Shown: piece by piece, positions 6,030 to 45,800 of the stretch
Position numbering within the stretch: the stretch's first letter is position 1
Layout of the letters: the number at the start of each line of letters is the position of its first letter
NCBI GenBank assembly: GCA_022495005.1
Contig: JAGYXB010000445.1
Location: forward strand, 310,001 to 374,000
Source of the DNA: Rhyacophila brunnea
Lineage: Eukaryota; Arthropoda; Insecta; Trichoptera; Rhyacophilidae
Direction: 5' to 3'
Length of the DNA stretch: 64,000 nt
Position numbers and translations under genes: made by a program
Notes under the pieces: generated by a model
Told to the model about the DNA's origin: nothing
Databases searched by the model: none
Seen by the model: only the letters and a program-made list of their open reading frames with translations

Positions 6030-9000
6030 ATGTATAATGTCCTTAAGCCGTTGTATGTATATATCGGATTATTTGGAATTCATAACATAAATAGTAGTAA
6101 CAGTGAAAATTCTACAATTCAAAAGTTTCATAAAATATTTTCAGTTTGTGTTTTACTAATTTTAGTTTCCGCCTTTGTACATGGAACCGCTAGTAATTTG
6201 GACGGTTATATAAAATCATTGAATGCTTCGATTGCTATAACGGATATTTTAGTTAGCTTATGTCTGTTTTTGGTAGCCTTTTGTTCAATATTTTTGTCTA
6301 TAACATACAACGAAAAATTACATCATAAACTGTTTACTGTCTTTAATGACATCAATAAATTGCTTTATCTTGATGTGAGACTTTACAGTAAATTGTACAA
6401 ATTCTACATATTGGCATCCATACTTGCTTTAGTATCATCCGTTTATATTATAATATCAGATGCTAACGTTTGGTTTGGCAGTGGAAATAATGTGCTGTTT
6501 CTAAACCACTACACTTTATTAGTAATGGATGTATTAATTCTGCAATACAGCATTGAAATTTCGATATCTGTTTTACAAATTGAAGTTGTAATTGAACAGT
6601 TAATTTGTTCAGGAAGTACAATACAAAGTATTGAATCTTTGGTGGTTGATTTTGAAAATAATCACATTTTATTTAAGAATATATCCAATTCAAATCTCAT
6701 TAAAATTTATGCGCGGAAGTCTATAAGCTTCTGGCAAAATAGTCCTGACACCACATCGCGATTAATGTTGGCGTTCGATAAGATTGTGGATAGCATCGAC
6801 ATTATTAATTCAACACATGGTATACAGGTAATTTTGTAAATCTATTTAACCATCTTAGAGCCCTTATAAACTGGCCTTTTTGAGAAGTGCCACGCCCATA
6901 CGGATGTTATACACGGACTATAGAACGATGACTAAACAGAACAGTGACAAAACAGAACAGCCAGGAGAAAAATGAAACATTAATTTTTGTGGAATCTATT
7001 TAGGTTAGGTTAGGTTAGGTGAGATATCCTAAGCTTGCCGGCAACACTATATACTATACGGCAACACTATATATAATTTGATTTATTACGGCGTATTGAA
7101 AATCTGTGCTATTAAAAATCTATCAACATAATAGAGATAGGACAATGTCAATATTAAATTTATATTTTACCTGAAAAGTCATAGTTATATTAATTATCGT
7201 TGTTCTGTTTGTCACTGTTCTGTTTTGTCATGTTCTGGTTTGTCATGGAACCGTAAGAAAGAAACTCCAGCTGTACGGTGTTTAGCGACGTAGGGCGCTT
7301 CTAAAAATCGCTAGTTTATAAGTTGCGTGAAGGTTAATGCTGTATTTTGTAAGCTATTTTTTATGCCTCTGTATGACTGTGAGACGTAGTACAAAAGTCT
7401 CTACTCTTGAGCTTTGAGAATCGATCTCCGCCGAATTTTAGGGGTACACTGGAACGACCGTAATAATTGAGTTTGTAGCTGCTTCGTCAGTTTTTGACAA
7501 CATATGTAACTACGAATAGTCGTTTTACAAAGCTCGGACACGGAAGTATTCTGGATATTACCGGATTCTGCCATAATCGACTCCCCTTCACCCTGAAGCG
7601 GTATTACAATCTACGCACCTACTGCAGCAGGTCTCAATCCGATGCTGAACTATGAATGTGATAGATTGAGGTAAGTAAGTAATATACATATAAAAATGAC
7701 CTTCATTTTATTATAATATCAAGAACAATAGTCATTTTCAGATGCTTCTCACAGCAACTTGCTGCTTTGTTTCAACTCTGTCAGGAACAAACGCCTACAT
7801 TCAAATGAACATCCTTCAACGTCGAGGAGTCATTGATGAAATTGGAAGAGTAAGTAGTACTTAGGTATACCTCATCATATGGCCGCCAATTATACGGTTT
7901 TTCACAAGGCCCTGTTTATAGTCAGGTGCTAAATTATCATTAATACTTTGAGTGCAATATGGTAAACAATATTTGCAGAAAATGATGATTATTTCATATT
8001 GAAATACGTAGCAATACGTGTTAATTGATTTTAATGAAATATACAATCCAAAATCTTCATTTACTGTATACTGCTTACCTCACTGCATTCGAAAATAATC
8101 AAAAACCAGCACTACAATCGCAACTCGTAAATTTTGTGCCCCAGTCTGTCTAAAGTTGGCCTTGGGATTTTCACTATAACGGCTTTTCAAAATTATGACG
8201 CAGTTTCTATTTACTTGTACCAAAAAAACTTTTCGACATATTGTGCATGTAAGCTATATGTATGTAATACAAATAGGTAAACATAATATCTTTACTGGAT
8301 GCAGAGCAATAACAATTACCTACTAATGAAAACATGCACCAACAAAATCGATAAAGTAACCTCGAAGTGTTTGCGAAAACCGCTTTGTTATTCGAGAAAG
8401 GAATGGACACACTACGTCAAATTGATTCCCGAAGAACGAATTTATTTTCGTAATGGAAAGTGATTTTAAAACGAATAAAATGCCTTGAAATTTTCTATAT
8501 TTTTTCTAAAATTGGATCCGTGGAAATTGTATTGCTTTACGGTTAACAGGAACGTGTTTTGGTCGTAAATCGAGGTATATATATTATTATATACTATATA
8601 ACGGTACCTAACTATAGTATTTTTATATAAAGATATTGTTATTCGATGGCTTAGTGCACAAATTTATGTGTTAAGTGCAATTTTAAGTTAAGTACCTTTT
8701 GTCTGAGATACATTCTGCAGTTTTTTTTGACATATTGTTCGGCGCGAACCGAGCAACACGGAGAGACTAGCGGTTTTGAATGGCCTCCAGGGAAGATGAA
8801 GTAGAGGAAGAGCGTAAGAGCGACCAAGTGAATGAGTTAACTGGGGACGACATTTATTTTTCCCTGAAAGAAGCAGAGGATCGAGAAGGGTGGAAAGTCT
8901 TGATCGCTCAAAAGATGACAGAATTTTAAGGTGGTTATGATCCTCAGCATGAGAGAACGATCATGAAGAATATCTCTCAAGCCCATATTTTATAGTACAC

Positions 9001-10946
9001 ATATTTTAGACAACATTTGTATGCGTTATTCTTAATAGAGGTTGGAGGCAGATGGAAACATTTCCCTGAATTGCAAGTTAGATATGGTGTGTTAAATTAT
9101 TGTTTAAATGTTTCAGGATGCACTAGCTTCCAGTTCGATCTGTTGGAGCATTCATTTTACAACTCGTGTAATTATGCTCACAACTATGTCAGAAGTATTA
9201 TTTAATACAGCAAAAAAAATAAAGGCCACATTATCTAAACTACGAATTAACAAATATATCAGTAAGTAAGCCATTTTGATAGTAATTATAATTGTTATAT
9301 TACATGTATCTACTTAAACATAATTGATTTATATAATAAGTTTCCTAAAATCTGCTATCATACCTATACACGCCTTTTATGTAAACCGTAGTCGACTTAG
9401 TAGTGTTGCCTCTACGCCAAGTCGTAGGCCGTAGCAGCGTAGGCTGTAGAGACGTAGGCCGAACAAGCACAGGCAAGACATGTATAATTATAGTTTTAGA
9501 AATAATGTATTTTTATTGATTTTATTGCACTATAACATATTGGTATCCTTTTATTCCTTAATAATTATCGTGTTATTATTATTAATTGCTGTATTACTAG
9601 AGACTATGGATTTAAAAGTCGGTTAGAGTATTATACGTTATATAACTTGCACCCTTTTTGCACTTTTTACTACATCCTTATTTTATACTATATTTAAACT
9701 TTGCCTTATTACCTCGCATACAATTACATCACATGATATTCACTTGTGTTAATATATGTAGTAATAAATAAATAAAAAGATTATAATTATAATAATATGT
9801 AAAAAATATATTTTTCATCCTAGAGCTGGAGTGCAAAAATATGAAGCGTATACTCTACCTCCATTTTTATTATTAAAAAAATATATTGATTATGATTCTT
9901 TAAGCACTTCTCCATCGTATGTAATACTGTTAGTATAATAGAAATAAACGTAATGTTGATTGCAAAGTTGGTTATATTCGTCGTAGGGACGCCATTTTTT
10001 TTATGTTTCTCGATTGACTTATTATCTATTTTTTTAGGTTATTTTATTTAGCCATCTATCTATCGAATAACTAATGTATTAACAAAAGAAAATATGCTTG
10101 GTGAAATTTTGTGAATATATCAGAATATTAGAATGTGGATGTAACCGACTTTGGTACCCTCACTTGTTGACATCATCGAGTTGAAAAATAATAATGTATA
10201 GTATAAAAGGTGCAAATGTATAATTTTGCCCTCCTATATAAGGGATAAATGACTTTTAATGACGTTTAGATTAACATTTCTAATTTTTTTGTAAAAACAT
10301 AGTGCGGTCACAATACTAAAGCTATAACAGATATAAATAAAATATAATACAATTATGAATAAAATTATTCATAATACTTAAGACAGCGTCAGAGAAAACT
10401 TATTAAACTCCATGACTCGAACCTGTATCCATCAAAATTCAGCCAATATGCTTTTTAAAATTAGCCACATACGCCCTACCTAATTACGATGAAATTAACT
10501 GAAAGTCATGCGATTGAAGCGCTTTACAAATTTTGTTAAAATTGGCGACTGGCTTTTGTGGTTTTAATCCAAGGTACCAATGACAAATACTTACCATGAT
10601 TACCATAAATATAGTCCAAACGTAGGTACTTTCACTTACTAATAATTTAATAAACTATTTTTTTTACTAGCACAATATTTTGTTCAAGGTTTTTCTCAAA
10701 TTTTGTGAATTATTATTAGTTATAATAATATACTCATATAATAAATGTTAATATTTTTCTGTTTATTTTACAGGTTGTTTCGTACGTGAAGAACTTGTAA
10801 CCTTTTCCCAGTTGGTGGAAAAAAGGTCTCTCAGATTGACTGCCTGCAACTTCTTTGAAATCGATTTTAATTTCTTGTGTGGGTTTCTGGGATCCATATG
10901 TGTCTACAACATCATTTTGGTCCAGATGAAAACTTATACCGTTTAA
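6030..10946 (+). CDS. Gustatory receptor GR1 (7tm_7 family), four exons
   Basis: Exons by hand: 6030-6827, 7742-7849, 9117-9261 and 10774-10946, giving 1224 nt and 407 aa. All borders are GT-AG, with intron phases 0, 0 and 1. GRs are seven-transmembrane ligand-gated cation channels of taste neurons. The first exon (266 codons) holds four hydrophobic segments. Exon 2 holds TM5 (TCCFVSTLSGTNAYIQ), exon 3 holds TM6 ending near MSEVLFNTAKK, and exon 4 holds TM7 with VYNIILVQM (from residue 394), the family's TYhhhhhQF signature with V for T and M for F. LVEKRSLRLTACNFFEID just before TM7 is also typical. The first exon ends with IINSTHGIQ, shared in form with GR2-GR5. It is the only receptor here on the plus strand. 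Ligand unknown; expression cannot be judged. Confidence 0.88.
6925..7253. mobile_element. Small DNA element with AACAGAACAGTGACA ends and a TTAGG tract, GR1 intron 1
   Basis: The left end repeats AACAGAACAGTGACAAAACAG. The right end (GTTCTGTTTGTCACTGTTCTG, then TTTTGTCATG) is its inverted counterpart and adds a GGTTCCATGAC-type terminus on reversal. Inside, four tandem TTAGG units occur at about 7001-7021. The same end motifs flank the larger element at about 57362-58775. Probably a non-autonomous DNA transposon; target duplication not resolved. Confidence 0.5.
7310..7650 (+). pseudogene. Degraded LINE reverse transcriptase C-terminal fragment, GR1 intron 1
   Basis: The plus strand reads, with breaks, phrases such as FFMPLYDCET and LSFENRSPPNFRGTLERP, resembling the post-catalytic C-terminal region of RTE- or CR1-like reverse transcriptases, which often carries a LYGSETW-like motif. 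Stops are frequent. Assignment is by resemblance only. Confidence 0.35.
7850..9116 (+). other. GR1 intron 2
   Basis: No nested gene seen. Most of it is repeated at 28959-30078 in the sister duplicated block, with small indels; a stretch around 8150-8320 of this copy is missing there. Conservation here reflects the segmental duplication. Confidence 0.6.
9400..9472. repeat. CGTAGGCCGTAG-type degenerate minisatellite
   Basis: Loose tandem repeats of a 10-12 bp unit such as GTAGGCCGTAGCAGC within GR1 intron 3. A paralogous copy lies at 30363-30432, and a longer related array at about 26120-26210. Their base composition stands out from the AT-rich surroundings. Confidence 0.5.
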
Positions 10947-11125
10947 AAAAAATAGATACCAAAGCCGTAGCAAGGTCTTTTGGCATCCAGCCCAGGAAAA
11001 GGGTAGATATTAAGCCACACGAAAACACTAACAATGGAATTCCTGAAAATAAAAATAAGCTAAGAGATCCAAGACCTTGCTACGGCTTTTAGACACAACA
11101 CAGCCAAGATCACCATGACTGGTCT
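10947..11125 (+). other. GR1 3' flank up to the LINE insertion
   Basis: Contains AATAAA-like words near 11046-11053 that could serve as polyadenylation signals for GR1. The sequence continues, after the LINE, at 16526 and is colinear with 31767-31950 and onward in the sister block. Confidence 0.45.
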
Positions 11126-11299
11126 GAGCGGTAGTTTTTTTTTTTTTCTTTATTTGGAAGCAATTGAGCTCTTCTCTGAATGGAAGGCTATTCTGCTTTA
11201 CAATGGTTTACAAAAGTATACATACATTTTTTTTTTAACGACAGGCATAAATAGTTACATTGTTAATGATACAGAATTACATTTTTGTTACACTATACA

Positions 11300-12478
11300 C
11301 TAGACATTTACGTTACATTTTTGGAGAAATTCATGTACAATTTTCATAACTGAAATATTTGGTTTTGCCAGGAACGAATTAATCGTAAAAGGAGGGTATA
11401 ACCTGCATTTTCCCAACTTATTCAATAACACTTCTCTCTCCTGGTCATAGGCATCACATTGCCAGACAATGTGGTTAAGATCTTGAGTGGGATGTCCACA
11501 CTGACACTGAGGGCTATCTACCACTTTAATTTTGTACAATGATTCGTTGAGACTGTAATGCCCTGACCTGCTTCTAGCTATTGTCACTATTACATCTCGC
11601 TTTATTTTACAATGTTTACTAAACCAAGTTTTAGGAGATCTACTATAAAAGTTTTGATAGTAGTGTGTTCCCTTTTCTTTCCCAAGATTTTCTAAATATT
11701 TACCGTTATTTTCGCTCATTGTTTGTTTAAACTGGGCTTTAAAATCTGTGTATGGAATTCTTATATTTTCTGATGGGTATTTTACAGATTTTTTTGCCAA
11801 TTGATCCGCAATTTCATTGCCATTAATTCCTTTATGTGCTGGAATCCAGTATATCTGTATATTTGTACCGTGTTCGTTACTATTGCTAAATTTGGAAATG
11901 TTGGTTCTAATATTAAGAATGTAGTCATTAGTTTTGATGCTGAAATTTGGATTTTCGAGCGAGTGAATCAGACTTAAGGAGTCAGTGAAAATGTTGATAT
12001 TTTTATTTTTGTAATTAAGTGCAATTTTAGTGGCTTCGTATAAGGCTAAGCACTCTGCTGTATAGATGGAAGTGAATCTGTGGACACTTTTGGCAACCGA
12101 CGTGTTGGATTGGGGGAAGAACACTGCTACACCTACTGAAGGTGAATCGGGAATTTTGCTTCCATCCGTAAAAATTTGGACTACATTTTGATTGCTAAAT
12201 TTGGACTTGAATAATAAGTCGGGAGAGTCGGAGTGCGATAGCTCCATTCCTATTTTTGTATTAGTTAAAACGTTATATATAATATCCTCATATGTATAAT
12301 TAAAAAAGTTGTAGAAGTCTCTTTTTAAAATCAGATGATCAATACAATTTACAGCTTGGATACTTTCTTTTAAAATTTGAAATCTCTTCGGAGTACGATC
12401 TCGCGTTATAGTTGTTTGTAGAAATCTGTTGACATTGTATCTCGTATTAGAAGTACGGTTTGACATACATTTTACCAA
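11300..12478 (-). CDS. LINE ORF2, RNase H domain and C-terminal zinc-knuckle-like tail
   Basis: 392 residues. The RNase H fold, which removes RNA from RNA-DNA hybrids during integration, shows all four catalytic acids: D105 in FTDGSK, E142 in YTAECLAL, D166 in FTDSLSL and D225 in NEIADQLAKK. It also has the WIPAHKGI loop. The C-terminus holds CQCGHPTQDLNHIVWQC, a CCHC-like motif usual after RNase H in insect LINEs. The frame is offset from the RT frame at about 12475, so the first residues here follow a frameshift. The stop at 11300 is followed by a 3' UTR of about 150 bp and the A-tail. Confidence 0.9.
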   Translation of the reverse strand: MVKCMSNRTSNTRYNVNRFLQTTITRDRTPKRFQILKESIQAVNCIDHLILKRDFYNFFNYTYEDIIYNVLTNTKIGMELSHSDSPDLLFKSKFSNQNVVQIFTDGSKIPDSPSVGVAVFFPQSNTSVAKSVHRFTSIYTAECLALYEATKIALNYKNKNINIFTDSLSLIHSLENPNFSIKTNDYILNIRTNISKFSNSNEHGTNIQIYWIPAHKGINGNEIADQLAKKSVKYPSENIRIPYTDFKAQFKQTMSENNGKYLENLGKEKGTHYYQNFYSRSPKTWFSKHCKIKRDVIVTIARSRSGHYSLNESLYKIKVVDSPQCQCGHPTQDLNHIVWQCDAYDQEREVLLNKLGKCRLYPPFTINSFLAKPNISVMKIVHEFLQKCNVNV

Positions 12479-14283
12479 GAAGTTTTACATAGAAATTTAG
12501 ATCTTTCTTCTAGTAATGTTATCTTGGCTTCGGCAAGTAGTATGTTAGTAGGTGTACTTTTTCTTAGGCCAAGAGCCAATCTGATAGCTTGGTTCTGTAG
12601 TCGTTCTAACTGTAGCTTTGCTCCTTTATTTTTTGGGAAGTAAATATAGCTTCCATAGTCCATTATGGATCTGATGTAGCTTTTATAGAAAGTTATTAGA
12701 GTGGAAGGGTGTGATCCCCACCAAGTACCTCTGAGGAACTTTATAATGTTGGTGGCTCTATTGACTTTCTGGGCAATGTAATTGACATGTTTATCAAAAG
12801 AAAGCTTGAAGTCAAAATAAATACCTAGAAATTTGGCTGATTCAGTTGATTTAATCATCATATCATTAAATTTAATTTGAAATTCTCCCGGCAGTATTTT
12901 GTTTTTGTTGAAATGTACGAATACCGTTTTCTCCGGAGATAGATCCAAACCCAGTTTGAATAGATTATTTCTAATTGTTTCTAGTGCACATTCCATTATA
13001 TTTTTATCCTGATTGGGGTCTTTAGTTTTAAGGAACAAAGATATATCGTCTGCAAATTGGGAGACTGTTATAGCTTTCGGTATATTGCGAACAATGTGGC
13101 TAACGTATATAATGTAAAACAGCGGACTTAAAATTCCTCCTTGAGGAACGCCTTTATACAGTGTTCTCGGGAGATCTATGTTTGAATTAGTATAGATTAA
13201 TCTCTCGTAGACAAGAAAAAAACAGAATTTAACGAGTTTAAAGGGGCACCCTATTTGTGCCAATATTTCAACGAGAATATCTGATTGAACGTTATTGAAG
13301 GCTCCAATCACGTCCAAAAAAATACCTAGCGTATGTTTTTTTTCATTAAAAGATTCTTCAATATACATTGCAACATTTGTTAGGTTATCCGCACAGGAAA
13401 AACCTTTCCTGAATCCGGTTTGTGTATCTGGGATAATTTTTTCTCTTTCCAGCCACCAGCGAAATCTATTTGCGACCATGATTTCTAAGATTTTGCAGAC
13501 ACATGAGGTCAGTGCAATAGGTCTTAAGCTATCCAAATTAGGTTTATTAATAAAATGTATAAATATGCTTTTCCATTCGTCAGGGAATTCCATGCTATGA
13601 AACATGAGGTTAAAAATGTCAAGGAATATATGTTTTATTGGAGTGGGAAGCATATTAATGACTTCATACGTTATCCCGTCCGTTCCAGGTGCGGAATTAT
13701 GTTGACGAGAATTTAATGCTATGCTGAATTCTATGAAACTAAAGTGAGTGTCGAATAGCGTGTTATTTTTGGTAACAGGGAAAATGTTAGGGTTACTTGG
13801 AACCCACGGTGGGCATAGTCTTTCAAGAGCAGCTTCAATTTTCTCTTTATTTTGCATATTTTGTTCAATACTATCGGGTCTAATTTTTATCCATTTGTTT
13901 TTAAAAATTTTTGCTTTTTCCCATGTATGCTTAAGGTCTGTGCTAAAATTGATGGTCTCTGCAAATTTTCGAAAGCAGTCACTCTTTTTCTTTTTAAAAG
14001 TTTTTTTAGCTATGGCAGCATTCTTTTTGTATTCAATTAAGTCTTTAAAATCTAAGGTAAATTCCCATTTTTTTAAGGCAGCTTTTCTTTTTCTCTTTAC
14101 CTTATCACTCTCTGAATCCCACCATTCTACTGGATTGCTATGGCGAAATTGGGGATTATTCCCTTTTTTTGGGGTGCAATCTATGATTGCTTGTGTGATT
14201 TTTTTAATGAGGAATTTATACTGCGAGACTGAACTTAAACTGAGAAAAGAATCTGTTTTGAATTCATTAATATTTTCAGCCAT
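12472..14283 (-). CDS. LINE ORF2, reverse transcriptase domain
   Basis: 603 residues holding a complete RT domain. SAPGTDGITYEVI (fingers), LRPIALTSCVCKILE, TQTGFRKGFSCADNL, LGIFLDVIGAFNNV (first catalytic Asp), GVPQGGILSPLFYIIY and QFADDISLF (catalytic Asp pair near residues 411-412) come in the standard order. KFLGIYFDFKLSFDKHV and the thumb region follow. The catalytic YxDD-type box is FADD, as in most insect LINEs. The domain itself is uninterrupted, but its frame differs from both the endonuclease and RNase H frames, so one frameshift lies at each end. Residues before about EWWD link it to the endonuclease. Confidence 0.92.
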   Translation of the reverse strand: MAENINEFKTDSFLSLSSVSQYKFLIKKITQAIIDCTPKKGNNPQFRHSNPVEWWDSESDKVKRKRKAALKKWEFTLDFKDLIEYKKNAAIAKKTFKKKKSDCFRKFAETINFSTDLKHTWEKAKIFKNKWIKIRPDSIEQNMQNKEKIEAALERLCPPWVPSNPNIFPVTKNNTLFDTHFSFIEFSIALNSRQHNSAPGTDGITYEVINMLPTPIKHIFLDIFNLMFHSMEFPDEWKSIFIHFINKPNLDSLRPIALTSCVCKILEIMVANRFRWWLEREKIIPDTQTGFRKGFSCADNLTNVAMYIEESFNEKKHTLGIFLDVIGAFNNVQSDILVEILAQIGCPFKLVKFCFFLVYERLIYTNSNIDLPRTLYKGVPQGGILSPLFYIIYVSHIVRNIPKAITVSQFADDISLFLKTKDPNQDKNIMECALETIRNNLFKLGLDLSPEKTVFVHFNKNKILPGEFQIKFNDMMIKSTESAKFLGIYFDFKLSFDKHVNYIAQKVNRATNIIKFLRGTWWGSHPSTLITFYKSYIRSIMDYGSYIYFPKNKGAKLQLERLQNQAIRLALGLRKSTPTNILLAEAKITLLEERSKFLCKTSW

Positions 14284-15128
14284 TGTATTTTAAATTTAAC
14301 CCAATTGGTTTTTTTGGTCTGCAACTTGAAAGTCTTTTTGAAATAAATTGCTTTTTGTACAGATAAATTAATACGCACTGGATAGTGATCCGATCCCCGG
14401 GGGTCTTCATCTATATTTAATACAATCTGTTGTAGAAGATTAGGAGAAGAAAAAACTAAATCAATATTTGATTTTGTACCTCGTCGCAGATCAATACGGG
14501 TTTTAGTATTATTGTTTATTAAAATTAAGTCGTAATCAGCTAAAGTATAGATGATTCTAGAACCATTTATATCATTTCTATTGCAATTCCACGCGACATT
14601 GTGGGCATTGAAGTCTCCCACCAATATGGTTTTATCATCTAATAGAGTATTAGTAAAAACTTGGTCCCATTCCTGAAGCGACAGATTTGTATTATTTCCG
14701 CTATTGCTCGGGGGCCTATAAACTGCAATGATATTAATTTTATCTTTAAGGTTAGTCAGTGTAATGCCCAAAACTTCAGTGGATATGTTCGGAATGATGG
14801 GGTTGTTAATAGCTTTGTAAGCTATAGTATTTCTAATAATGAAAATTATACCTCCTCCTCTGGCGTACGTCCTGTCTCGCCGAAGCACCATAAAACCTGG
14901 GAAGCTAATAACTATGTGAGGAATGGTGTCGTTTAACCATGTTTCAACGCCTATAAAAATATCAATTTCATCTAGCATCACTCTAAGCTCCTCTAGTCTA
15001 TTAAGAATGCTTCTTGTATTCCAGAAAACAATACGTATATCAGATTGAATAAATTGGTTAACTTTGTTGCTGGAATTATGCATTATGTTATTGTTCCTCT
15101 TGTCCTTCCAACGAACTAATATCTTCAC
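14235..15128 (-). CDS. LINE ORF2, endonuclease domain
   Basis: 297 residues forming an AP-endonuclease-like domain, which nicks target DNA for target-primed reverse transcription. Visible active-site motifs are WNTRS (N37), GVETW (E62), VGDFNAHN (residues about 170-177) and GSDHYPV (near residue 245). The glycine-rich YARGGGIIF segment is also typical. The frame loses register around 14285, where the reverse transcriptase frame begins, so the last residues (after about KKTNWVKFK) are frameshifted and not native. Domain order and spacing to the RT domain are as expected for an APE-type LINE. Confidence 0.88.
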   Translation of the reverse strand: MKILVRWKDKRNNNIMHNSSNKVNQFIQSDIRIVFWNTRSILNRLEELRVMLDEIDIFIGVETWLNDTIPHIVISFPGFMVLRRDRTYARGGGIIFIIRNTIAYKAINNPIIPNISTEVLGITLTNLKDKINIIAVYRPPSNSGNNTNLSLQEWDQVFTNTLLDDKTILVGDFNAHNVAWNCNRNDINGSRIIYTLADYDLILINNNTKTRIDLRRGTKSNIDLVFSSPNLLQQIVLNIDEDPRGSDHYPVRINLSVQKAIYFKKTFKLQTKKTNWVKFKIQWLKILMNSKQILFSV

Positions 15129-15474
15129 TGGAAACTTTTAATTGTGGATAACTGAGTCTTTTCTTGATCTTTGTTATGCGACTTTTAATGCTGCGTTCTT
15201 TTAAATGACTATAGATTTCTGTTAGCATGTTATTAAGAGCTTCTATATCAGTAGTAAATTCATTAGCAATCATTTCAGTATTGGGATTTCCATGTGTTTT
15301 CACAAGGAAACTGAGTAATGTTTCATAATCGATTGGAAATCTATGACGATTACTTTCAACATGTTCCTTGGCAGGTAACAAAAGTTCATTTGTATCTTCA
15401 GTGGATACTTTTTTTCTTTCTTTTTTTTGATTTTTTTGGTGTCTGTTGGAGTGCAGGAATGCGTGAGATTGCAT
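15088..15474 (-). CDS. LINE ORF1, C-terminal part in a shifted frame
   Basis: 128 codons overlapping the end of the preceding frame and running on with acidic, serine-rich sequence (SYPQLKVSSEDISSLEGQEEQ at the end). It has no known domain. I read it as the remainder of ORF1, moved out of frame near 15420, because the overlap lies at an A-tract and the sequence continues without a gap to the start of the endonuclease frame. Its stop at 15088 overlaps the first codons of the endonuclease frame (15128), an arrangement common between LINE ORF1 and ORF2. Confidence 0.6.
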   Translation of the reverse strand: MQSHAFLHSNRHQKNQKKERKKVSTEDTNELLLPAKEHVESNRHRFPIDYETLLSFLVKTHGNPNTEMIANEFTTDIEALNNMLTEIYSHLKERSIKSRITKIKKRLSYPQLKVSSEDISSLEGQEEQ

Positions 15475-16336
15475 TATTTTTCACTGTATCTTCAAATTCA
15501 AATTCTACGCTGCTGATATCAGTTGGACTGGTCAACGGCCTTTTTGAACCGATTGGCGTATCCTTGTTGATAATAGAGTTGTCCGACTCTATATCTGCAG
15601 CTAGTTCATCCTCCTGGAGTGTATTTTCTCTCTCTAACGAAAGAGAGGTTAACACATTTGGTACATTGAGAGAGTCAGGCAATTGTACAGTGTGAGGTTC
15701 ATTATTTCCAGTTGTTTTACAATATTTGGCCAGATGGCCCTCTTCTTTGCATATAAAGCATGTCAATTTTTCGGTGGAGAAGTAAATCCAGTACAGGGTA
15801 TTATCAAAATTTATTTGCATTGACTCTGGCAGTTTAATAGTGTCTTCTGGGTTTACATAAACCTGTCTCCGGAAACTTAAAATATGTGCATAACCCGGTT
15901 CGTTAATACCAGCTCTGATGCTTGTAATACGTGAAGTAGTTTTTATGTTTAATTCGTTTAGTTTTGATTCCAGAACGCTGTGTGGGATTATAGGACACAC
16001 GTTTGATATTATTATCCTCTTTGATTTGGTGATCAGCGGCCTGATTTCTAGTACGTGGTTTCCAATTTTAACTGTTTCTTTATTTACTGTTAATTTATCT
16101 GCTTGTTCTTCACTACTCAAGTATATACATATTCTTCCCTGGGAAATCCTAGATACATATCTTATATGACATGGACCTACCTTATTCCCGATTGACAGTG
16201 TATATTCTCGTATAGAGATGCCCTCGATAGCATCTAAAACGATGGCTTGCTCCTTCTTCGGAAATTGCATTTTTTGAGCAACTGATGCATAAGACATTGT
16301 TTGTTGGGTTTCTTTTTGGTGATCCATTGCTGGCAA
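15398..16336 (-). CDS. LINE ORF1 (Gag-like, one CCHC zinc knuckle), N-terminal part
   Basis: 312 residues of an RNA-binding ORF1 protein that would coat LINE RNA. A basic/polar N-terminus leads into an RRM-like region (residues about 45-170, with IIISNVCPIIPHS and GYAHILSFRRQVY). A single CCHC knuckle follows, with C193, C196, H201 and C206 in CFICKEEGHLAKYC. The frame ends in a lysine-rich tail (KKSKKRKKK) encoded by an A-rich tract, where the reading shifts into the frame of 15088-15474. A one-base indel in that tract is the simplest cause. It starts at the first ATG after a 5' UTR of about 175 bp; an alternative ATG four codons later is possible. First coding region of the 11140-16511 LINE. 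Confidence 0.82.
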   Translation of the reverse strand: MPAMDHQKETQQTMSYASVAQKMQFPKKEQAIVLDAIEGISIREYTLSIGNKVGPCHIRYVSRISQGRICIYLSSEEQADKLTVNKETVKIGNHVLEIRPLITKSKRIIISNVCPIIPHSVLESKLNELNIKTTSRITSIRAGINEPGYAHILSFRRQVYVNPEDTIKLPESMQINFDNTLYWIYFSTEKLTCFICKEEGHLAKYCKTTGNNEPHTVQLPDSLNVPNVLTSLSLERENTLQEDELAADIESDNSIINKDTPIGSKRPLTSPTDISSVEFEFEDTVKNNAISRIPALQQTPKKSKKRKKKSIH

Positions 16337-16525
16337 CGTTGTATTTTTGATTTTTAATAAGCGCCCCTGTAGTCAGAGACACTTAAATGTAAACAACTTT
16401 GTAACAATAATTTATTGTTACGCCGCGCGCACAACTGGTTATTATTAATTTGTAAACACTCGCTATCTCATTTGGTGACGTGCGACGGTCGCCGAGCACA
16501 CGGAACAACTGGAGCGGTAGTTTTT

Positions 16526-26210: not shown

Positions 26211-26389
26211 GCCAAAAATGTATTTAGTTTAGTATTAGAAGAAATTATTTTATTGGTAGTGTTGTATTACATATTGCTATTATATATTATTAATTGCTTA
26301 TTATTATGGAATTATAAGGGCTATTCACTGATTGCTATCCATTTAATGATCCATAATTTGCCGCTGACGATGGTTATTAGCCTAAAAAG

Positions 26390-28840: not shown

Positions 28841-28861
28841 TAATTTTAAACAGCCTAAGTA
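28841..28861. other. Tandem-duplication breakpoint: GR4 intron 3 joined to GR1 exon 2
   Basis: Left of 28840 the sequence follows GR4 intron 3 (to about 43592). Right of 28862 it follows GR1 from 7753, within exon 2. About 21 bases between them match neither parent and look like repair filler. Confidence 0.8.
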
Positions 28862-33735: not shown

Positions 33736-33984
33736 TTAGGGGTACGCCTTCATTTGAAAAAATATTACATTATAAATAATGGTACTAGACAAGAGACCCC
33801 ATAAGAAGCTACAGTCAAGATTGAATAAATTTAAAACCGTCAGTTGTAAAGGTCTCTTCTCGATCAATAAATAATATTGTAACATCTGGTGACGCATCTG
33901 GCTACCTGAAATTTTCAATAATAAGTAATTAATATAATATGTATTTGCATTAATCTCAATAATATATTTACTAAAAATAACCTA

Positions 33985-34613: not shown

Positions 34614-34640
34614 AAGAATATATAATTCTGATTATTGAAC

Positions 34641-35160: not shown

Positions 35161-36194
35161 ATTTATTGAACTTGATTATTTTTCCAACTGGAACTATATC
35201 GCAATTGACGTGATTTATAATGCAAAGCAATTGTGATTATTGTTTCTGTTGTATTTAATTTAATGTATCGTAATTATATGACTAGATGTTTTTAATATTT
35301 ATTACACTTTGCCTACATACTATTCCGAGATAAAATACAGTACGCGATATAATACATCTCAGCTCCCCTTCTCTCTTGATATAGTTAATTACTTTTTTCA
35401 ATTATTAATTTATTGAAATCAATAAGTTCCTAGTTAAGTATATTTCATAAACTACATAACATATTGTGTATTCAACTTACTAAGATAACTGTTTATCATC
35501 AACTTCAACAGTGAAACTTTCAATCTTCTTCCCTCACTTAATAATGCTTCTGATACAATGATTGTAATCACCAACAAAATAAGGAAATGTGCACTATAAA
35601 TGAGATTGCTGATGGAGGATAGTATGTCCTTAAAGTAAATAATAAAACATCTATTACATAATGACCTGAGATTATATCAATAGGTATTATATTAATTTAA
35701 TATTGAGACTAGATAGTTATACTAATTAACGTAATAAATGCCTAAACTTCCTATCAAAAATCCTGTAGTCGATAGAAATAGGGAGAAAAATATTTAACTA
35801 CTAATTATATTTATAGCTGTGAAACGAAACGATCGCTAGACCACTATGCACGACAGCAAAATCGTATACAGGCAGAGATATAGTAGACGATATACCCGAT
35901 AGGCGAATAAAATTGTCAGATATTATTTGAGCATCGAATACCCACAGTGTATATTATAATATCCTTTGCATTGAGAAATAAAATTACTACACTCTTCAGC
36001 GAGCATTCGCCCAACAGTAATTTAGAGAAAGTTTGTTAAGCTATACAGTTGTCTTTCTAAAATATAACGGTATTTTAAAGTGAGACGACACGTCGAAGTA
36101 GTATATTTTACAAACTATTCTTTCAATGCCCTTTTCTGGAAGGGGTTAGAACCCCCTCTTCACACCACCATTGTAGGGGCCAGATACTCTAGCG

Positions 36195-37175
36195 CAAGAG
36201 AGGGGGGGGGGGCAAACTGCGGCCCGCCGGGAATTTTTTTGCGGCCCGCCATCATTAATTGTACTTCTGATTACGAATAACTTTTTATAATTTTTTAAAA
36301 ACTATTGACAATAGATTAAAATTTGAAGAATTTGTTGTTTAGTAAATGTATTATCTCAGTACTTCTTCCTTGCGTCTCGTCTCACACTATGTAACCATTA
36401 TTTTCTACGTTCAACATAATGACACATTTAAATACTTTTAACTCCGCGTTGCAAGGAAAGAATATAATATGCGCATGATATGGTAAAAAGTTCGAATGGA
36501 TTTCAATTAAAACTCAAGTTATTCCTTCGACAAATATCGAATAACAACGTGGACCACTTTCCAAATTTGAAGTTGCTGAATATACCAGAATATAAATTTG
36601 AAGAATATGATAAAATTATTAAAGCTCTGAAAGACGATTTTTCACAAAGATTTGGTGACTTCCGAAAAATTGACAAGTTTAGCAATAGTACGCCATCCAT
36701 TTTCAATAGATATTGATAGTGTACCGACAGAGCTACAACTTAAGATTATTGATCTGCAGTGTGACACTGATTTAAGAGAATTGCATCGTCGTGACGAAAT
36801 CTCCAAATTTTACAATGCCCTTAATTCAGACAAATTCGACCAACTTAAAGATTACGCAAGAAAAATGTTCGTTATTTTTGGATCAACCTATATAATATGT
36901 GAACAAACATTTTCGATCGTGAACCTCAATAAAAATTCTTTACGATCAAATATTTCCGATGCCCATTTACAAGCAGTTTTGAGAATATCAACCACAAAAT
37001 TAACACTTGAATAAAAAAAAAAGTTAAAAAAATATGTTACAACAGTTTCATTATTCTCATTAATTTTTTTGTAATGTTTATTTTTCGTGATAATAAATAG
37101 TGTATATCTAAAAATGGTATTTTACATTTTGAATTCTTGAATTTGGCCCTCCATCCAAAAAGTTTGCCCCCCCTG
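36195..37175 (+). mobile_element. hAT-superfamily transposon remnant (GR3 intron 2)
   Basis: The right end reversed reads GCAGGGGGGGCAAACT and the left end AGAGAGG...GGGCAAACTG, giving hAT-like terminal inverted repeats with G-runs. Flanks TCTAGCGC (36188-36195) and CCTAGCGT (37176-37183) fit an aged 8-bp target duplication, and the matching GR2 intron has a single TCCAGCGC. Internal frames carry the end of a transposase related to GTF2IRD2-like/ZBED hAT proteins: NVDHFPNLKLLNI, then after a frameshift near 36690, ELQLKIIDLQCD, FGSTYIICEQTFSIVNLNK and DAHLQAVLRIS. These are the C-terminal dimerisation region; the catalytic core is missing, so it is an internally deleted, inactive copy. Confidence 0.82.
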
Positions 37176-39406
37176 CCTAGCGTCTAGTCTAAAATAATTG
37201 ATTTTTGTTATTTTAAGTTGACGTTTGACCCACGTCCTATAATAATTATATAACAACTAAAATATCAAGAATCACTTAAGCTTAGAATAAAAATAATATA
37301 ACGAATATTTTCATGTAATGAATAAACTGATGATCTATTATAAACAGGTTTGAGAAATCGCCTTCTTCAAGTAATAATAACCCAAACATTGTCCACCAAA
37401 TTCAACGTATAATTTACTTTCCGCGCATGACATAACACAATTATTGTTGTGTTTAATTTTAAAAATAAAGCAACTATGTTCGATTTATCTGTGTAATGTT
37501 TATGCAAATCAATAACGAAGCACCTCCAATCTTATGTCTTCGAGAGTCTTGGGGTGGAGTGGTAGTAGGTGGCATTCATTTCAACATAATATTATATAGG
37601 TATATTAGAAAATAATTTATGCAAATGTCAACATAAATGCAATAGTAAATAATTTTATTATATGTAATATTTACCTAATATATTTTCAAATATTGACATC
37701 GAATTATAAAGTTTGTTCCTGATAAAATGCACAAAAAGCAGCAAAAAACTATGAATAGCATCTGAAAAATAATGGACAGTTTAGAAATTGTCGTCTCCCA
37801 GTATAGCAAAAATAATGGTACCTACCACAAAAACTGCTAATAATGGTCAATAAATGAATAATATGTACCTAGTTTCAATGGAATATACAAACAGGCAAGT
37901 AATATTTATAGGGTTTTAAAGAATTATTCTCTTATCGTTTAATTTGGTTAAATAAACTATGACTAAGTTTTTTCAAGATGAAATATTGAAGACAAAAATA
38001 AATATGTAATAGCAAATGCGGCCAATAATAATTGTCTGTTTTTTTTTAATGTACAAAATATACATAGTGACACGAATATAAGTTTCATCCCTTATATAAA
38101 TCATTATCGAGCTGATTCATAGAAATATGAACAGTGTTGACTATCATGGTAAAAAAGTTGGTTTAGTTGTGGATTATTTTAGAATAATATTGTCTAACAA
38201 AGTATTTTGATTGTTGCTCGCAAATTTTTCTATCGAGAGCAGTTTACAGACTTGGCTTCTATTTTTCGACATGCACAGCTAGTTCAAGCGGGATGCCTCT
38301 GTAGTATTATTGGAAATAAATTACACCGCGTCTCTATACAAACATCCGTTGTTGTCAATATGTCACTGAATGAAAACCCAGCAAGACGATATCAGCCTGT
38401 AATCACAATCAAAGGAGAGTACCAGAAGCTTTCTATTCTCTCTTTAGAGGTGCCAATAGGCAGTAATTATAATAGCTTGTCCATTATTTTTAATTGGTTC
38501 CGTTTTATTAAAAGCAATAAAATTATGATTTGGTCACAGTACAAGAAAATCTATATTATATAATAATAATAAACATTTTCAGTAAATTACCTGCAGTCCA
38601 TGTGACGAATTGATAATTTCAATGTTATCAGCAACATTATCGAAAATGTGCATCAATCGTTCAATATTATCAGGCTGTTGTTTCCATAGTATTTTATATT
38701 TCAATGCATCATTCTTTGCGGTATTAGAGATAGAAAAATACTTTATAATAACATCGTTATTATTAAAATCCATTAACGTATTATCGACGTTTTTCATTTC
38801 AATGTGATAACACAGAAGTTGTTCATTTATAACTTGGATCTGAACTATTGATATAGAGATTTCGAGAACATATTGCAAAATGACTGCATCCAATAAAAAA
38901 ACGTAATAATAGCTAAAATAATCTATCCAATTTATGACTTTATAAAAATTAAACAAGTCAATAGCTATTAAAATTGATGAGAATAGCAATTGTACAGTTG
39001 TCGCTAATACGAAGAATTTGAAATACTTTTCGTAAAAATGATTTTCCAGATAAAGTTTCTTATTTATGGAATCTAAGTTGACAAAAAATTTAACTTGCAG
39101 GTTTATATTAAATATACCTGTCATGGATAACGTAGTTATACCAACCATAAAGTATCCGAGATGCAGCAAAACTTCTATTGTGGCCATCGATAGATTAAAC
39201 TCAATATAGTGATTACCTTCAATTTTAATTTTCGTTGAAAAAATGTATGTAACTAGATAAGCTAAGAATAATGAAATGCAATACAGTTTGCGTACTCTCA
39301 ACCATATTAAAGATTTACTATGTGTATAAAAATTATGATTATAAAGTCCAAATATTGAAAAGTAATTATAGAATGGCCTTACAATCGAAAACATTTTCAT
39401 AATCAT

Positions 39407-40778
39407 TTAACTGCACTAATCCAATCAATTAAGAAGAGTCAATAATTCTCTTTTATGTGTAAAGTGAACCTGTTATTTATAGGTATTTTCTATACATAAT
39501 GAATACCTAATACACGTCGTAATTGTGTGAGCTGTTTTCACGTACTTCGTAATAGTATTTTGATCGTCGAAAATGATTATATCACACAATTTCGTTCCAT
39601 GAAGATAAATGAGTTTTACGTAGGTAGGTAATATAAATTAAATATTTATATAGACTACATTCAATTTATTGTAAAGTTGACAGCTATTGATTTTTTTTGT
39701 ATTTAAATGTAATATGGTTTAGTGGAAAAGTGGTAGAAGTATACCACTTATTCAATAGTTTAGAAATAAAGTACACCCAAAAAGTGACCATAGCGTAACG
39801 TTTATTGTAATACGATTAATTTTAAAATAGGTTTTACGTGTCGTCATAATGTTTTTCGGCTATATCCGCTATCGGCTAGATAGTATTTAGCGGCCTTCCA
39901 GGATGCCGGAATCCAGTTTGCTTGAAGAACAGGAAAGCCAGGATGGGGTTCACTTCTGGTATCCGCAGCACATGGCAGAGCCAGGTCCAACGTCGCCTAT
40001 CCACTCTCAGCGTGATGAGAGGCTTCTTGGTGCGTTCTCTTATCTCTTCGTTACTCCTAAAGTCATACCACCACAAACCCAGTACACTTGTTTTCGAAGC
40101 CCAGTTTACGGTTGCTCTGAGCCTTTGTATGGTGCCATGATTCTCTACAATGTTAATACATATTATTTTAAATCATCACCATTGGTTCATTCACTCTAAC
40201 TTATATGGTAGTATAAATGAGTCATGTGTGTAGTATTATACGTGAACTACGAATTTATAACATTATTTATGGGTTTTTAGTATAGTTTATTATAGGTAAA
40301 TTTGAAATATAGAGGTTATGTTGAAAATGAAAACGAACAAAGTATTAATCAGAGAAATAAAAACAATATCTTCGGTAAGATATCTGGTTGAAGAAAAACG
40401 TTCTGGTTCAAAAAACTCAGAGATTGGTTTGAACTCAGTACCTCATCCCTATTTAGAGCAGTGTTGGGCCAAGAGGAAGTGGCTTCACTCATCGCCGACG
40501 GGAGATTACGAATATGGCACGAAAAGAAGAAGAAATTTGTAATAAGATTTTACAAATTCACTCATTTATATCGTTAATATCTCAGAGCGGTGCTTCTTAA
40601 ATTGTGAGGTATCGCGAAGTTTCTCCCAAGGAGATGCACAATATTTTAGTAAATACTGAAATTAATAAATTAGTACACATATTTTTTTCAAAATCTGCAT
40701 AATTAAATAACACGTGCATATAGTACTGTGGTAAAGACTCACTAGGATAGGTGATTATTTAAAGATTACATATTTTCT
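39407..40778. other. GR3 upstream region, near copy of GR2 upstream region
   Basis: Colinear with 24160-25537. It includes the presumed GR3 promoter, the LINE RT tail fragment (39875-40140, minus strand) and a stretch at 40580-40640 (CGGTGCTTCTTAAATTGTGAGG) that resembles a hAT terminus without a partner. No gene seen. Confidence 0.55.
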
Positions 40779-42173
40779 TAAGGGGGGACATGCTCGTCGA
40801 AGGTCAAAATTGAGTTTTTATTGTATTTTCAAACCATGATCCTGGACACTCCTTAAACGTTGTAGATAATCTATTTATATAATTTTAAGCCTTATTATCC
40901 TTTATAGTTAATTTAAACATTTGATGACTGCATAAAGTATTTTTGTTACATAAAATAGTATTCTTTTAAACCTCTCGTTCTAATGTTTTAAAATATAGTC
41001 ATATTTTGGTACATAACTGTGCAGTGGTGTTAGGATTTTTTACATTTATTAATTTTTAAACGCATTTATAAAACCATTAGTATAATTTATTATGAGATAA
41101 TTTTTGTAAAATATTCACGATAAAAATTATATTGATAATCTCTGTGATCCCAAATTTGACAAGAATTAGGCATATTATTATTCAAAAAATCGGCAAGATT
41201 TACATGTTTGAAGATGATTCTAAAGATATTTAATATAATCTATGTCTTTGACCATTCAAGTGTAATAAACATCTTATGAATAATGATTGCTTTATAATAA
41301 TTATTGACCTAAGAATAAGGTAGTGTTTTTTGAAATACGCCATTTCTTTTGTCATTCCCCAGTGGTTAAGCTACAACATACGGCCGTAGCCATAAATTGA
41401 CAAACTATAATTAAAGTAGGGAGTAAAATGATATTGACGCGCGTGTTTGAACATGTACCGTTTAAAAAAAAATAAAAAAAAATTCGGTTAGGTACATGTT
41501 CAAACACGCGCGTTAACATAATTTTACTCCCTACTTTAATTATAGTTTGTCAATTTATGGCTACGGCCGTATGTTGTAGCTTAATCACTAGGAAATAACA
41601 AAAAAAATGGCGTATTTCAAAAAAACACTACCTTATTCTTAGGTCAATAATTATTATAAAGCAATCATTATTCATAAGATGTTTATCACACTTGAATGGT
41701 CAAAGACATAGCTTATAATACGTATCTTTAGAATCATCTTCAAATGTGTTAATCTTGCCGATTTTTTGAATAATAAAATGCCTAATTCTTGTCAAATTTG
41801 GGATCACAGAGATTATCAATATAATTTTTTATCATGAATATTTTACAAAAATTATCTCGTAATAAATTATGCTTATGGTTTTATAAATGTGTTTAAAAAT
41901 TAATAAATGTAAAAAATCTTAGCACCACTGCACAGTTATGTACCGAAATATGACTATATTCTAAAACATTAGAGCGAGAGGTTTAAAAGAATACTATTTT
42001 ATGTAACAAAAATACTTTATGCAGTCATCAAATGTTTAAAATAACTATAAAGGATAAAAAGGCTTAAAAATTATATAAATAGATTATCTACAACGTTTAA
42101 GGAGTGTCCAGGATCATGGTTTGAAAATACAATAAAAACTCAATTTTGACCTTCGACGAGCATGTCCCCCCTT
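40779..42173. mobile_element. Foldback (palindromic) DNA element, copy 1, about 1.4 kb
   Basis: The whole element is an inverted repeat. TAAGGGGGGACATGCTCGTC at the left is mirrored by GACGAGCATGTCCCCCCTTA at the right, and the match continues for about 680 bp per arm to an A/T-rich centre at about 41461-41491. No transposase is encoded. Outside it, TTTAAAGATTACATATTTTCT occurs on both sides (ending at 40778 and starting at 42174), but only once at the matching site near 25535. Left TTAA and, in other copies, right TTAA suggest a piggyBac-like TTAA preference, though the right side here reads TTAT. Copies 2 and 3 lie at 33985-34613 and 53455-54297. Confidence 0.82.
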
Positions 42174-42819
42174 ATTTAAAGATTACATATTTTCTTGAAA
42201 ATGACTATGTTTTATAGATTTAACATTTACTTTCAATTGTGAATAACTGTGTTTATTGCTAGAAATAATACAAATCGATATTCATTTGTCAGCATATTTC
42301 TATTATACGTATAGTGTTATCAGTTCTGTCTAGGTCTATATTCTATCAATAGAATCTAGATCGTTACAAAGATAATTGTCGAGTTAAAATGTATTGAAGT
42401 AGATGCTTATTTAAAAAAATCCATCATTTATGGAAAAACTAGGTACCTAGCAAACACCTTGAATTCATTGGTTTAAAGATAAAATTTGTAGGTAAATAAT
42501 ATGTGTAGTCGAAAATAATTAGGCAGAAAATGAACACATGTAAAAAAAGATGCATGCAGTTCTTATAATACGTTTATTGGTAAAATAATGACAATGAAAC
42601 TAAACACAAATACAACTGTCAAAATGTGCACTTTTTTTTCGGTTACCTTTCACATATTTCGAGCAGGCACTCGTAATCACTGGTAGACGTACTGCTATTC
42701 GGTATATTTGTAATAATGATCAATTATTTCCGTTTAAATAAAAGCGAAACTTTACGATATAAGTCCACTGAATTTTGGTCTCAAATATTGTCCATGGCTT
42801 GTCTAATGCCCGGACATTT

Positions 42820-45800
42820 TTATTTATATGCTTTCATTTGAAAAAGTATAATGTTATAAGTGACAAGAGTGGAGAAAAGTCCCCACAAGAAGCTCCAGTC
42901 AAGATTGAAGAGTTTGGAAACTGTTATTTGTAATGGTCTTTTCTCTACTAAAGAATAGTACTGTAGCAATTGATCACGATTTTGGTTATCTGAAATGTTA
43001 TATATCAAGATATTATGATACATACTCGTACATTAATTGTTTTAAAATACTTACTCAAAATACATAGGAACTTATATAATTATATAATATTAGTAAGTAT
43101 AATAATACTTTAGGATATTAGCCTTAATGTAGATGTTATATGTAAGCTTATAATATACTATTTTAAATTTTATTTTTCAACTCAGATCCAGATTTTTCAT
43201 TCAAACCTATCAGACACAGAAATAAGTTTAATGGTTTTCACACTAAGTTCATATACGGAAAAATCTGTATGCCAGAGTCAGTGTGACAGATGTTCATGAA
43301 AATTAATTAGGTACAGATTTGTATTTAAATTATCAAATTATCATTATGAATCAATTTTACTTTTGAGTAAATTCATAAAAAAAACATAAAAATTAAAAGC
43401 AAGTACCGAAATCCTTTACGGGTCAGGTATTAAAATTCATTTATAATGATTCCAGTTAAATTTATATTTACATTTAAAGCCAAACTAATTTATAAATAAA
43501 CCCTCATTGGCCTGCATAAATAGAGTATTTGTAGAGCAATTTATATTCTTCCCTGATCATATTTTTTAGCAAATAATTGTTTTTAAAATATAACATATAT
43601 AGTACCTAACAGTTGGACTAAGTGGGATTCAATTTCACACCTTTCACTATCCGCGTGACTGATATTAAACAATAAGCTATCTATCCGTCTTTCATGCTAA
43701 TCATTGTTAATATGTAGCTGTATTAAATTTATAATTATTAGTAACACTCTGCCTTATTGTAATGCCGGCATAAAATGCTAAAAGTATAATATTTCTCTTC
43801 TTTTATGGTGGTATACATAAATACAAAGTTATCAAAGGTTCCTACTTAATATAACATTTTAAAGTATATTAAAATAAATTTAACTTACTTAGATATTCGT
43901 TTATCACCAACTTTATCAATGTAACTTTCAGCCTTCTTCCCTCACTCAATAATGCTTCTGATACAATGATTGTTATCATCAAAATAATAATATAATGTGC
44001 ATTATAAACAATATTGCTGAACAATGACATTGCATCCTAAAAATAATAAAAAAACAGTTTTTTGTAATTATTATATTATACGATACGTATTTCATCATTC
44101 AATTGAATTCAATTAAATAAATTTTTTAACATATTGCCGACTTTACAAATTATAAGTTTAAGACGTTCACAACATGACATAAAACATTATTATAAAAAAA
44201 CAAGAAAAAAGTAATAAAAGCGATAAAAATTAAAATATAAAAGCAGTGAAAATACAATTGTACATCTATAGGGCTTCAAAGAAGAACCTACACCGAGTTT
44301 TCTAAAGAGATCATATTTAAAGAATTTATAAAATAGCGACCACCTAAGTTCACCCTCACGTAAGTGGAATATATCAACACCCGAAGCAATATGGTTGCTA
44401 TTTTCACTATTTTCACCATTTTCCATACCTAGGTCTTTGCACAACGTATAGTCACCGAATTTTATGATTTCGTCTATCCAGTGTATTTTGGAACATTTTT
44501 CTATGGTATCACTGTACGATGGAATTTATCCAGGGATTCTATACACTCGATGAGTGACGTGTCATATATTCACATTGCCTACTATTGTCTGCTTTCATAT
44601 CCGTTGATTTATTTTGTGGTATTTCCGTGTTATGCCCAACATTAATGCATTTATTTATTATATCTACTTGAGTTGAGTTGAGTCTTCGGCGTGAACAGTC
44701 GTGCTTTCAATAAATTTATGTCGCCGTCTAATTACAAAGAATTACTTTGCTTAATTAGTTATTTCGCTCATAAACGATCATTATAAATCGTTAAATTAGT
44801 GTTAAGCTAGTAATTAAATTTGGTGTTTCATAAAAATTTGTCAACGTTGTACAAACTGTTTCGATTTAGTTCATCTTATATTTATAATAAATATTAATAA
44901 TAACTATTTTGTAGTTAATAAATAAACGGGATAGTTTAATATTGTAATTTTGTAATTTCTTATTATTATTATGGATTAAGGCAACAATTTAATATCGTAC
45001 GTTGTGTTTTTTTGTGTTGATTGTTGTGTTGATTGTTTAGTTATAATGACCTACACTCCGGTAAAACTAAGTGATCTTGCAATATCCTAAGGTAGCAACC
45101 GTTCAGACATTTAAACCATATTGGCAGCAAAGGCATAGTAATATGCCGCTCAAGCGGACCCCTCCTCGTGGGGAATCGCTACCGGACATTACAGACCCTG
45201 CAAACACTGCTTCAGAAATTGGAACACGCGTACGCGAGCGGTCAAAAAAGGAACGCTCGCCGAAGAGCCCCAAATCACAAGATAAGGCCTCTACTGCTGA
45301 AGATGGAGAAAGAGAGCCAAAGCAAAAGAGAACCAAACAAAGAAGCCACCAGCCTGCACCCCCGAGTACTTTGGATGTTGAAAGCGACTGCAACGTCATT
45401 ATAGATTCAGCAGTATCGGACACCACAACCGAGCCTGAAAATAATGTCATCTATGATGACATACAAACGTGCTTACATGAAGTGCACCCTCCCTTAGGGG
45501 CAAACAGGCTGACTCTAAAGATAAGCTACATAATGCCCTACTAAACCTTTCCGAGGCCGTTGGAAGGCAGAATTTGTGCATGGCCAAGCTGGAGATAAAA
45601 GTCGTAGCGCAGGAATGCGAGATTAAGGGCCTGCAGATTCAACTTCGTGATAGGCAATTAAACATTGAAAATCAAAACCTGGCCATTGCTGATTTGAGAG
45701 AGCAGACGAAAACTCTCAAAACTGCCACATTACAAATCCACAAAGAGCCTGCCATCACTGCCCCCCTCCTCTTCTTCCCTACGGGAGGAGGAGAAAAACG

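What the first reader, a model, noticed from the sequence alone, without database searches (positions are those of the whole stretch)
7753..43592. A tandem segmental duplication that made GR2 and GR3 and broke GR1 and GR4 copies
Block A (7753-28840) and block B (28862-43592) hold the same order: GR1 exons 2-4, shared non-coding DNA, a GR2/GR3 gene with its upstream region, then the GR4 last exon and part of intron 3. Breakpoints fall inside genes at both ends, giving one complete new receptor and two dead fragments.
Basis: seen in the sequence. Interest (0 to 1): 0.75.

Follow-up and report, generated by a model that had tools for sequence, protein, structure and literature searches.

The report
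Tandem duplication in a taste-receptor cluster
A stretch of insect DNA holding a taste-receptor gene was copied side by side, leaving stumps of two neighbouring receptor genes at the seam, but the extra receptor carries a stop signal and the two copies have aged very unevenly, so it is an ordinary kind of event with a less ordinary history.

Summary
The seam (28841-28861) was found once in the 1.09 Gb assembly (40 of 734 candidates scored). Its arms match GR1 exon 2 and GR4 intron 3. GR1 and GR4 stay open; their seam copies are dead: GR1' lost its start and has a frameshift, GR4' is one exon with two stops.

Two points change. First, "one complete new receptor" is not supported: GR3 has an in-frame TAG as the last codon of exon 2. 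Second, the copies aged unevenly. Non-coding DNA within the GR2/GR3 exon 1-3 region differs at about 15%, close to silent sites (dS 0.18). The rest of the block differs at about 7%. The 860 bp beginning 11 bp upstream of the ATG differ at 1.6%, with a sharp step. One event with uniform divergence does not fit; later gene conversion, or fusion of diverged haplotypes, does. No repeat is shared by the two breakpoints, so recombination between dispersed repeats is not supported. Related species could not be compared. A new example of a known kind.

The parts
7753..28840 (+). Block A of the tandem duplication
   Evidence: Self-BLAST, collinear with block B
28862..43592 (+). Block B of the tandem duplication
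   Evidence: seam search
28841..28861 (.). Seam: 21 bases not assigned to either parent with confidence (filler, or decayed continuation of GR4 intron 3)
   Evidence: Alignment of seam to both parents; found once in the window with up to 3 mismatches
6030..10946 (+). GR1, 4 exons 6030-6827, 7742-7849, 9117-9261, 10774-10946; open frame, 407 aa; left breakpoint is inside exon 2
   Evidence: Pfam 7tm_7 64.6 bits
28863..31767 (+). GR1' dead copy: truncated exon 2 (to 28958, without its own acceptor), exon 3 (30079-30223), exon 4 (31596-31767) with a 1-base frameshift
18565..24159 (-). GR2, exons 24159-23356, 22021-21935, 21078-20931, 18734-18565; open frame, 402 aa
   Evidence: Pfam 7tm_7 71.0 bits
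33736..39394 (-). GR3, exons 39394-38591, 37761-37675, 35628-35481, 33905-33736; in-frame TAG at 37677-37675, last codon of exon 2
27896..28062 (-). GR4' dead fragment: copy of the GR4 last exon with two stops; exons 1-3 lie outside the duplicated block
42823..53097 (-). GR4, coding exons 53097-52291, 50567-50484, 44036-43889, 42989-42823 (stop codon follows at 42822-42820); open frame, 402 aa; right breakpoint is in intron 3
   Evidence: Pfam 7tm_7 71.0 bits
24170..25029 (-). GR2 upstream tract almost identical to that of GR3 (14 of 860 columns differ)
   Evidence: Segmentation; 16 of 868 at 24160-25027, 1 indel
20625..24159 (-). High-divergence tract: GR2 exons 1-3, introns 1-2 and the adjoining 300 bases of intron 3, against GR3
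   Evidence: Non-coding 266 of 1772 columns inside BLAST pieces; 303 of 1876 with looser alignment; dS 0.183 over the whole coding sequence
11126..16525 (-). Non-LTR retrotransposon in block A only, flanked by a direct repeat of 9-14 bases (11126-11139, 16512-16525; the last five are T and run into a T tract); single, unfilled counterpart in B at 31939-31952
   Evidence: Sequences and positions; endonuclease, RVT_1 and RNase H domains

Best explanation
In an insect gustatory-receptor cluster, one stretch running from inside GR1 exon 2 to inside GR4 intron 3 was duplicated head to tail. The joint was made without a shared repeat, most likely by end joining or template switching (inferred). GR1 and GR4 stayed whole. 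The seam received an orphan GR4 last exon and a headless GR1, both of which decayed. The one receptor gene lying wholly inside the block became two, GR2 and GR3. The copies then exchanged sequence unevenly: the DNA just upstream of the start codon was made nearly identical again, most likely by gene conversion (inferred), while the receptor bodies diverged, on average under purifying selection. GR3 acquired a stop at the end of exon 2 and is now probably a pseudogene.
For: Collinear direct repeat with exact ends and a seam found once (40 of 734 candidates scored). GR1, GR2 and GR4 open, with splice phases 0, 0, 1. Stops in GR4', frameshift and missing exon start in GR1'. No similarity better than a 14-base word, E 0.012, between 2 kb around each breakpoint on either strand. 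The seam's left arm matches only its parent, and the first dispersed repeat on the right arm begins at about 29073. Divergence splits into 7.2, 13.0, 1.6 and 5.1% segments; the first-split gain is 45.5 against at most 7.0 in 40 shuffles, whose split points were tried every 5 columns. Near-upstream against the rest of the block: 16 of 868 against 394 of 5862, Fisher P 3e-10; gene-body non-coding against the rest: P 1e-24. dN/dS 0.36, bootstrap 0.24-0.56. GR2 exon 1 finds no gene besides GR3 above 75% (6 of 6 candidates scored).
Against: The replacement:silent counts of the two dead fragments (22:12) do not differ from those of GR2/GR3 (61:40; Fisher P 0.69), so relaxed selection is shown only by the lesions. 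The 21 seam bases could hide a short homology. Conversion is inferred from two sequences only; PMC4122928 warns that conversion tests can give false positives where parts of a gene differ in constraint. Constraint on a shared promoter, or fusion of diverged haplotypes, would also give uneven divergence. The GR3 stop rests on one assembly.
Confidence: 0.75

Rival explanations
1. The duplication was an unequal exchange between two diverged haplotypes, so the GR2 and GR3 bodies were already different alleles (balanced or introgressed) when they came to lie side by side; the step in divergence reflects allele age, not later conversion.
For: The high-divergence tract is one compact piece, 18802-24169 by segmentation, which one event could explain. 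GR2 and GR3 are sisters in the exon 1 tree (94/91).
Against: Silent divergence of 0.18 is, to my knowledge, very high for alleles of one species. The 1.6% tract next to it needs a further event anyway.
Confidence: 0.25
2. The two blocks are two haplotypes wrongly placed in tandem by the assembler.
For: Many insertion differences between the blocks; only one assembly was seen.
Against: dS 0.18 and non-coding divergence of about 15% in the gene body. No N bases. Lesions in both orphan fragments, and an abrupt seam inside an exon. Single full-length matches for the seam and GR1 intron 1 do not decide, since a false join could also leave them single.
Confidence: 0.07
3. One receptor body was overwritten by gene conversion from another cluster member after a duplication whose age matches the 6-7% of the rest of the block.
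For: Most of the block lies at 4.5-8.4%, so replacing one tract is a single event.
Against: Among the 6 places found for GR2 exon 1, the closest besides GR3 is GR4 at 75%, and GR2 and GR3 are sisters. No donor was found in this assembly; a lost donor is possible.
Confidence: 0.15
4. The near-identity upstream of the start codon is kept by strong purifying selection on a shared control region, not by conversion.
For: The tract begins 11 bp upstream of the ATG, where a promoter would lie.
Against: Only 16 of 868 columns differ, with 1 indel, over a contiguous stretch whose B copy includes an open frame (39876-40172) that resembles the end of a retrotransposon protein (by recall). Uniform constraint over that length would be unusual.
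Confidence: 0.2

Closest known systems
Tandem duplication of gustatory receptors in Lepidoptera, e.g. Spodoptera (PMC9339325: abstract, section list and matched passages seen)
   Same: Receptor clusters grown by tandem duplication, with some pseudogenes and little positive selection detected (7 receptors in that paper).
   Different: That paper reports SINE enrichment near receptor clusters and suggests duplication by unequal crossing over. Here the searched seam arms lie in no repeat and the two parents share none. Breakpoints are resolved almost to the base, inside two genes.
Gene conversion among Drosophila chemosensory paralogues (PMC4122928: matched passages seen)
   Same: Fragments of paralogues more alike than expected from their age; signs of conversion in 8 of 14 ortholog groups tested there.
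   Different: Here the near-identical tract is upstream of the gene while the coding part has diverged. That paper found negligible effects of conversion on its estimates.
Haplotypic false duplication (recalled, no paper seen)
   Same: Would also give two collinear blocks with one seam.
   Different: Silent divergence here exceeds what I would expect of alleles, and both orphan fragments carry lesions.

Membership tests
Insect gustatory receptor (Pfam 7tm_7, PF08395) | Full-length match above Pfam's cut-off of 26.6 bits | tested here: met
   GR1 64.6, GR2 71.0, GR4 71.0, GR5 75.6 bits. GR3 was scanned as exon 1 only, no hit; its exon 1 is 91% identical to that of GR2.
Insect gustatory receptor (Pfam 7tm_7, PF08395) | TYhhhhhQF signature in transmembrane domain 7 (wording from PMC9339325) | tested here: inconclusive
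   GR4 TYNIILFQM, GR5 TYNVILIQM, GR2 and GR3 IYNVIFFQM, GR1 VYNIILVQM: tyrosine and glutamine kept, last F is M, T varies.
Tandem segmental duplication | Adjacent direct copies with the same internal order and a seam joining the block's end to its start | tested here: met
Tandem segmental duplication | Pre-duplication arrangement present in relatives or other haplotypes | not testable with these tools
   The genome is stated to have no relatives in the collection.
Duplication by recombination between dispersed repeats | Same repeat at both ancestral breakpoints and at the seam | tested here: not met
   No alignment between 2 kb around each parent better than E 0.012. Seam arms match only their parents over 341 bases on the left and 211 on the right (40 of 734 candidates scored). 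DNA just right of 43592 was not searched genome-wide.
Complete new receptor gene (GR3) | Uninterrupted coding frame over all four exons | tested here: not met
   In-frame TAG at the last codon of exon 2; otherwise open.

The most novel reading that the evidence does not exclude
Control region and receptor evolve apart: repeated conversion keeps the promoters of GR2 and GR3 alike, so both are expressed in the same taste cells, while the receptor bodies diverge under constraint. GR3 with its end-of-exon stop may still be used, through read-through or by skipping the 87-base in-phase exon.
Probability: 0.12. Interest if true: 0.55.

Novelty: new member of a known kind. Interest (0 to 1): 0.3.

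Why it matters
The abstract of PMC9339325 states that the physical mechanisms behind gustatory-receptor expansion remain elusive, and the paper suggests a role for SINE elements. This is one duplication resolved almost to the base that shows no repeat at the seam, makes two gene stumps, and probably left no second working receptor. It also shows that dating such a pair from one part of the block could mislead several-fold (1.8 to 15% in non-coding DNA).

Tried and rejected
Protein database search with GR2: 2703 candidates, none at E <= 0.001. PDB search with GR2: none. Rfam at gathering scores: no match. Two motif scans for the last exon did not find it; a search with the GR4 last exon did. 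Positive selection on GR2/GR3 as a whole: not supported; dN/dS 0.36, and dN did not exceed dS in any of 1000 bootstraps. Faster evolution of GR3 than GR2: changes placed with GR4 as outgroup are 14 silent:31 replacement on GR3 and 16:21 on GR2, with 19 unplaced changes dropped, Fisher P 0.36: not shown. Relaxed selection in the dead fragments by counts: not shown. Alignment: the first table forced some stretches outside BLAST pieces; a second tally used hand-made subtractions, one of them a guess (5 differences in 52 bases), and is withdrawn except for its GR2/GR3 branch test. The recount, non-coding columns inside BLAST pieces only, gives 266 of 1772 for the gene body, 394 of 5862 for the rest and 16 of 868 near upstream. 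Paper search for gene conversion, gustatory receptor, tandem duplicates and insect together: 0 papers; other searches were made, seen as listings apart from the two papers named.

Full report
What was checked. The window (64,000 bases, no N, 32% G+C) lies at G000:C1501:310001-374000 of an unnamed 1.087 Gb assembly. A search with Pfam 7tm_7 gives 98 matches, counted exon by exon, with 111 of 288 candidates scored. The window holds five gustatory receptors of four exons each, with splice phases 0, 0 and 1 in all five. The spliced proteins of GR1, GR2, GR4 and GR5 match 7tm_7 at 64.6-75.6 bits against a cut-off of 26.6. The insect order was not established; a TTAGG-type array and the family point to an insect (inference).

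The duplication is real. Self-comparison gives a single direct diagonal between 7753-28840 and 28862-43592. The seam sequence was found once in the assembly, 40 of 734 first-look candidates being scored. Its left 341 bases otherwise match only window 43269-43592. Its right part from 28862 matches window 7753-8152, and from about 29073 also a dispersed repeat. GR1 intron 1 next to the left breakpoint was found once at full length; the repeat matches listed lie within 6914-7262 (40 of 2751 candidates scored).

Breakpoints. The left one lies 11 bases inside GR1 exon 2, which starts at 7742. The right one lies in GR4 intron 3, between exon 4 (42989-42823) and exon 3 (44036-43889). Between the blocks are 21 bases that align only loosely to the continuation of GR4 intron 3. 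Two-kilobase flanks of the two parents share only short words, the best being 14 AT-rich bases at E 0.012. Recombination between dispersed repeats is therefore not supported; end joining or template switching is the likely route (inference).

What became of the genes. GR1, GR2 and GR4 have open frames. GR1' lacks the start and own acceptor of exon 2 and has a frameshift in exon 4. GR4' is an isolated last exon with two stops, at positions that code for tryptophan and glutamine in GR4. GR3 is open except for one codon: the last codon of exon 2 is TAG, directly before the splice donor. Translation would end after 296 residues, without exons 3 and 4. I take GR3 as a probable recent pseudogene. 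Read-through, exon skipping (87 bases, phase kept) or an assembly error are not excluded. GR2 and GR3 agree at 343 of 403 translated positions, terminal stop included.

Uneven age. Silent sites of GR2/GR3: dS 0.183; dN 0.066; ratio 0.36. Non-coding columns inside BLAST pieces: gene body 20625-23355, 266 of 1772; rest of the block, 394 of 5862 (from 4.5% at 27270-28840 to 8.4% on the GR1 side); 868 bases upstream of the ATG, 16. A looser alignment gives 303 of 1876, 420 of 5907 and 16 of 868, with 1 indel and an identical run of 229 bases in the upstream tract. Segmentation of 10,299 columns (exons included) puts steps at 18802, 24170 and 25030, with rates 7.2, 13.0, 1.6 and 5.1%. The first-split gain is 45.5 against at most 7.0 in 40 shuffles. 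Silent sites against the near-upstream tract: Fisher P 1e-15; gene-body non-coding against the rest: P 1e-24. One event with uniform divergence does not give this.

Why uneven. GR2 exon 1 finds 6 places in the assembly, all on this contig: itself, GR3 at 91%, then 75, 74, 72 and 71%. GR2 and GR3 are sisters in a tree of 8 exon 1 proteins (94/91; two of the three extra rows are partial and one fills only 32% of the columns). No donor for either body was found. Conversion that spared the receptor body is my first choice, and fusion of diverged haplotypes the second; two sequences cannot decide.

Against my reading. The replacement-to-silent counts of the dead fragments (22:12) are not distinguishable from those of GR2/GR3 (61:40), so only the lesions show their decay. 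The GR3 stop and the seam rest on one assembly. PMC4122928 warns of false signs of conversion where constraint differs along a gene. No related genome was available.

Later insertions. A retrotransposon at about 11126-16525 in block A is flanked by a direct repeat of 9-14 bases and has an unfilled counterpart in B, so it most likely came after the duplication. Domains found: endonuclease, reverse transcriptase, RNase H.

Verdict. Its product is probably already broken, and its divergence is a mosaic.

Noticed in passing
58405-58483, inside an inverted repeat 58329-58552: Interstitial telomere-like array (TTAGG/CCTAA type, 15.8 copies, 81% matches) in a 224-base inverted repeat in GR5 intron 2.
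   Followed up: no
40779-42174, 34639-35160, 53497-54284: Large palindromes (93.9% over 1402 columns at 40779-42174, 93.9% at 34639-35160) with related copies elsewhere in the window, probably foldback or MITE-like elements.
   Followed up: no
45071-49166 (+): A second non-LTR retrotransposon with interrupted frames (RVT_1 at 48213-49166), inside GR4 intron 2 and antisense to it.
   Followed up: partly
36631-37014 (+): Short open frame resembling a hAT-type transposase end (by recall; no Pfam match), in an insertion of block B that block A lacks, in GR3 intron 2.
   Followed up: no
6914-7262: High-copy dispersed repeat with inverted ends in GR1 intron 1 (119 matches listed for the query, itself included, 40 of 2751 candidates scored).
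   Followed up: partly
L012, L013, L014 (G000:C1501:417451-418254, 392216-393024, 380178-380959): Further relatives of GR2 on the same contig; for L012 and L013 the longest open frame covers only part of exon 1, so they may be broken.
   Followed up: no
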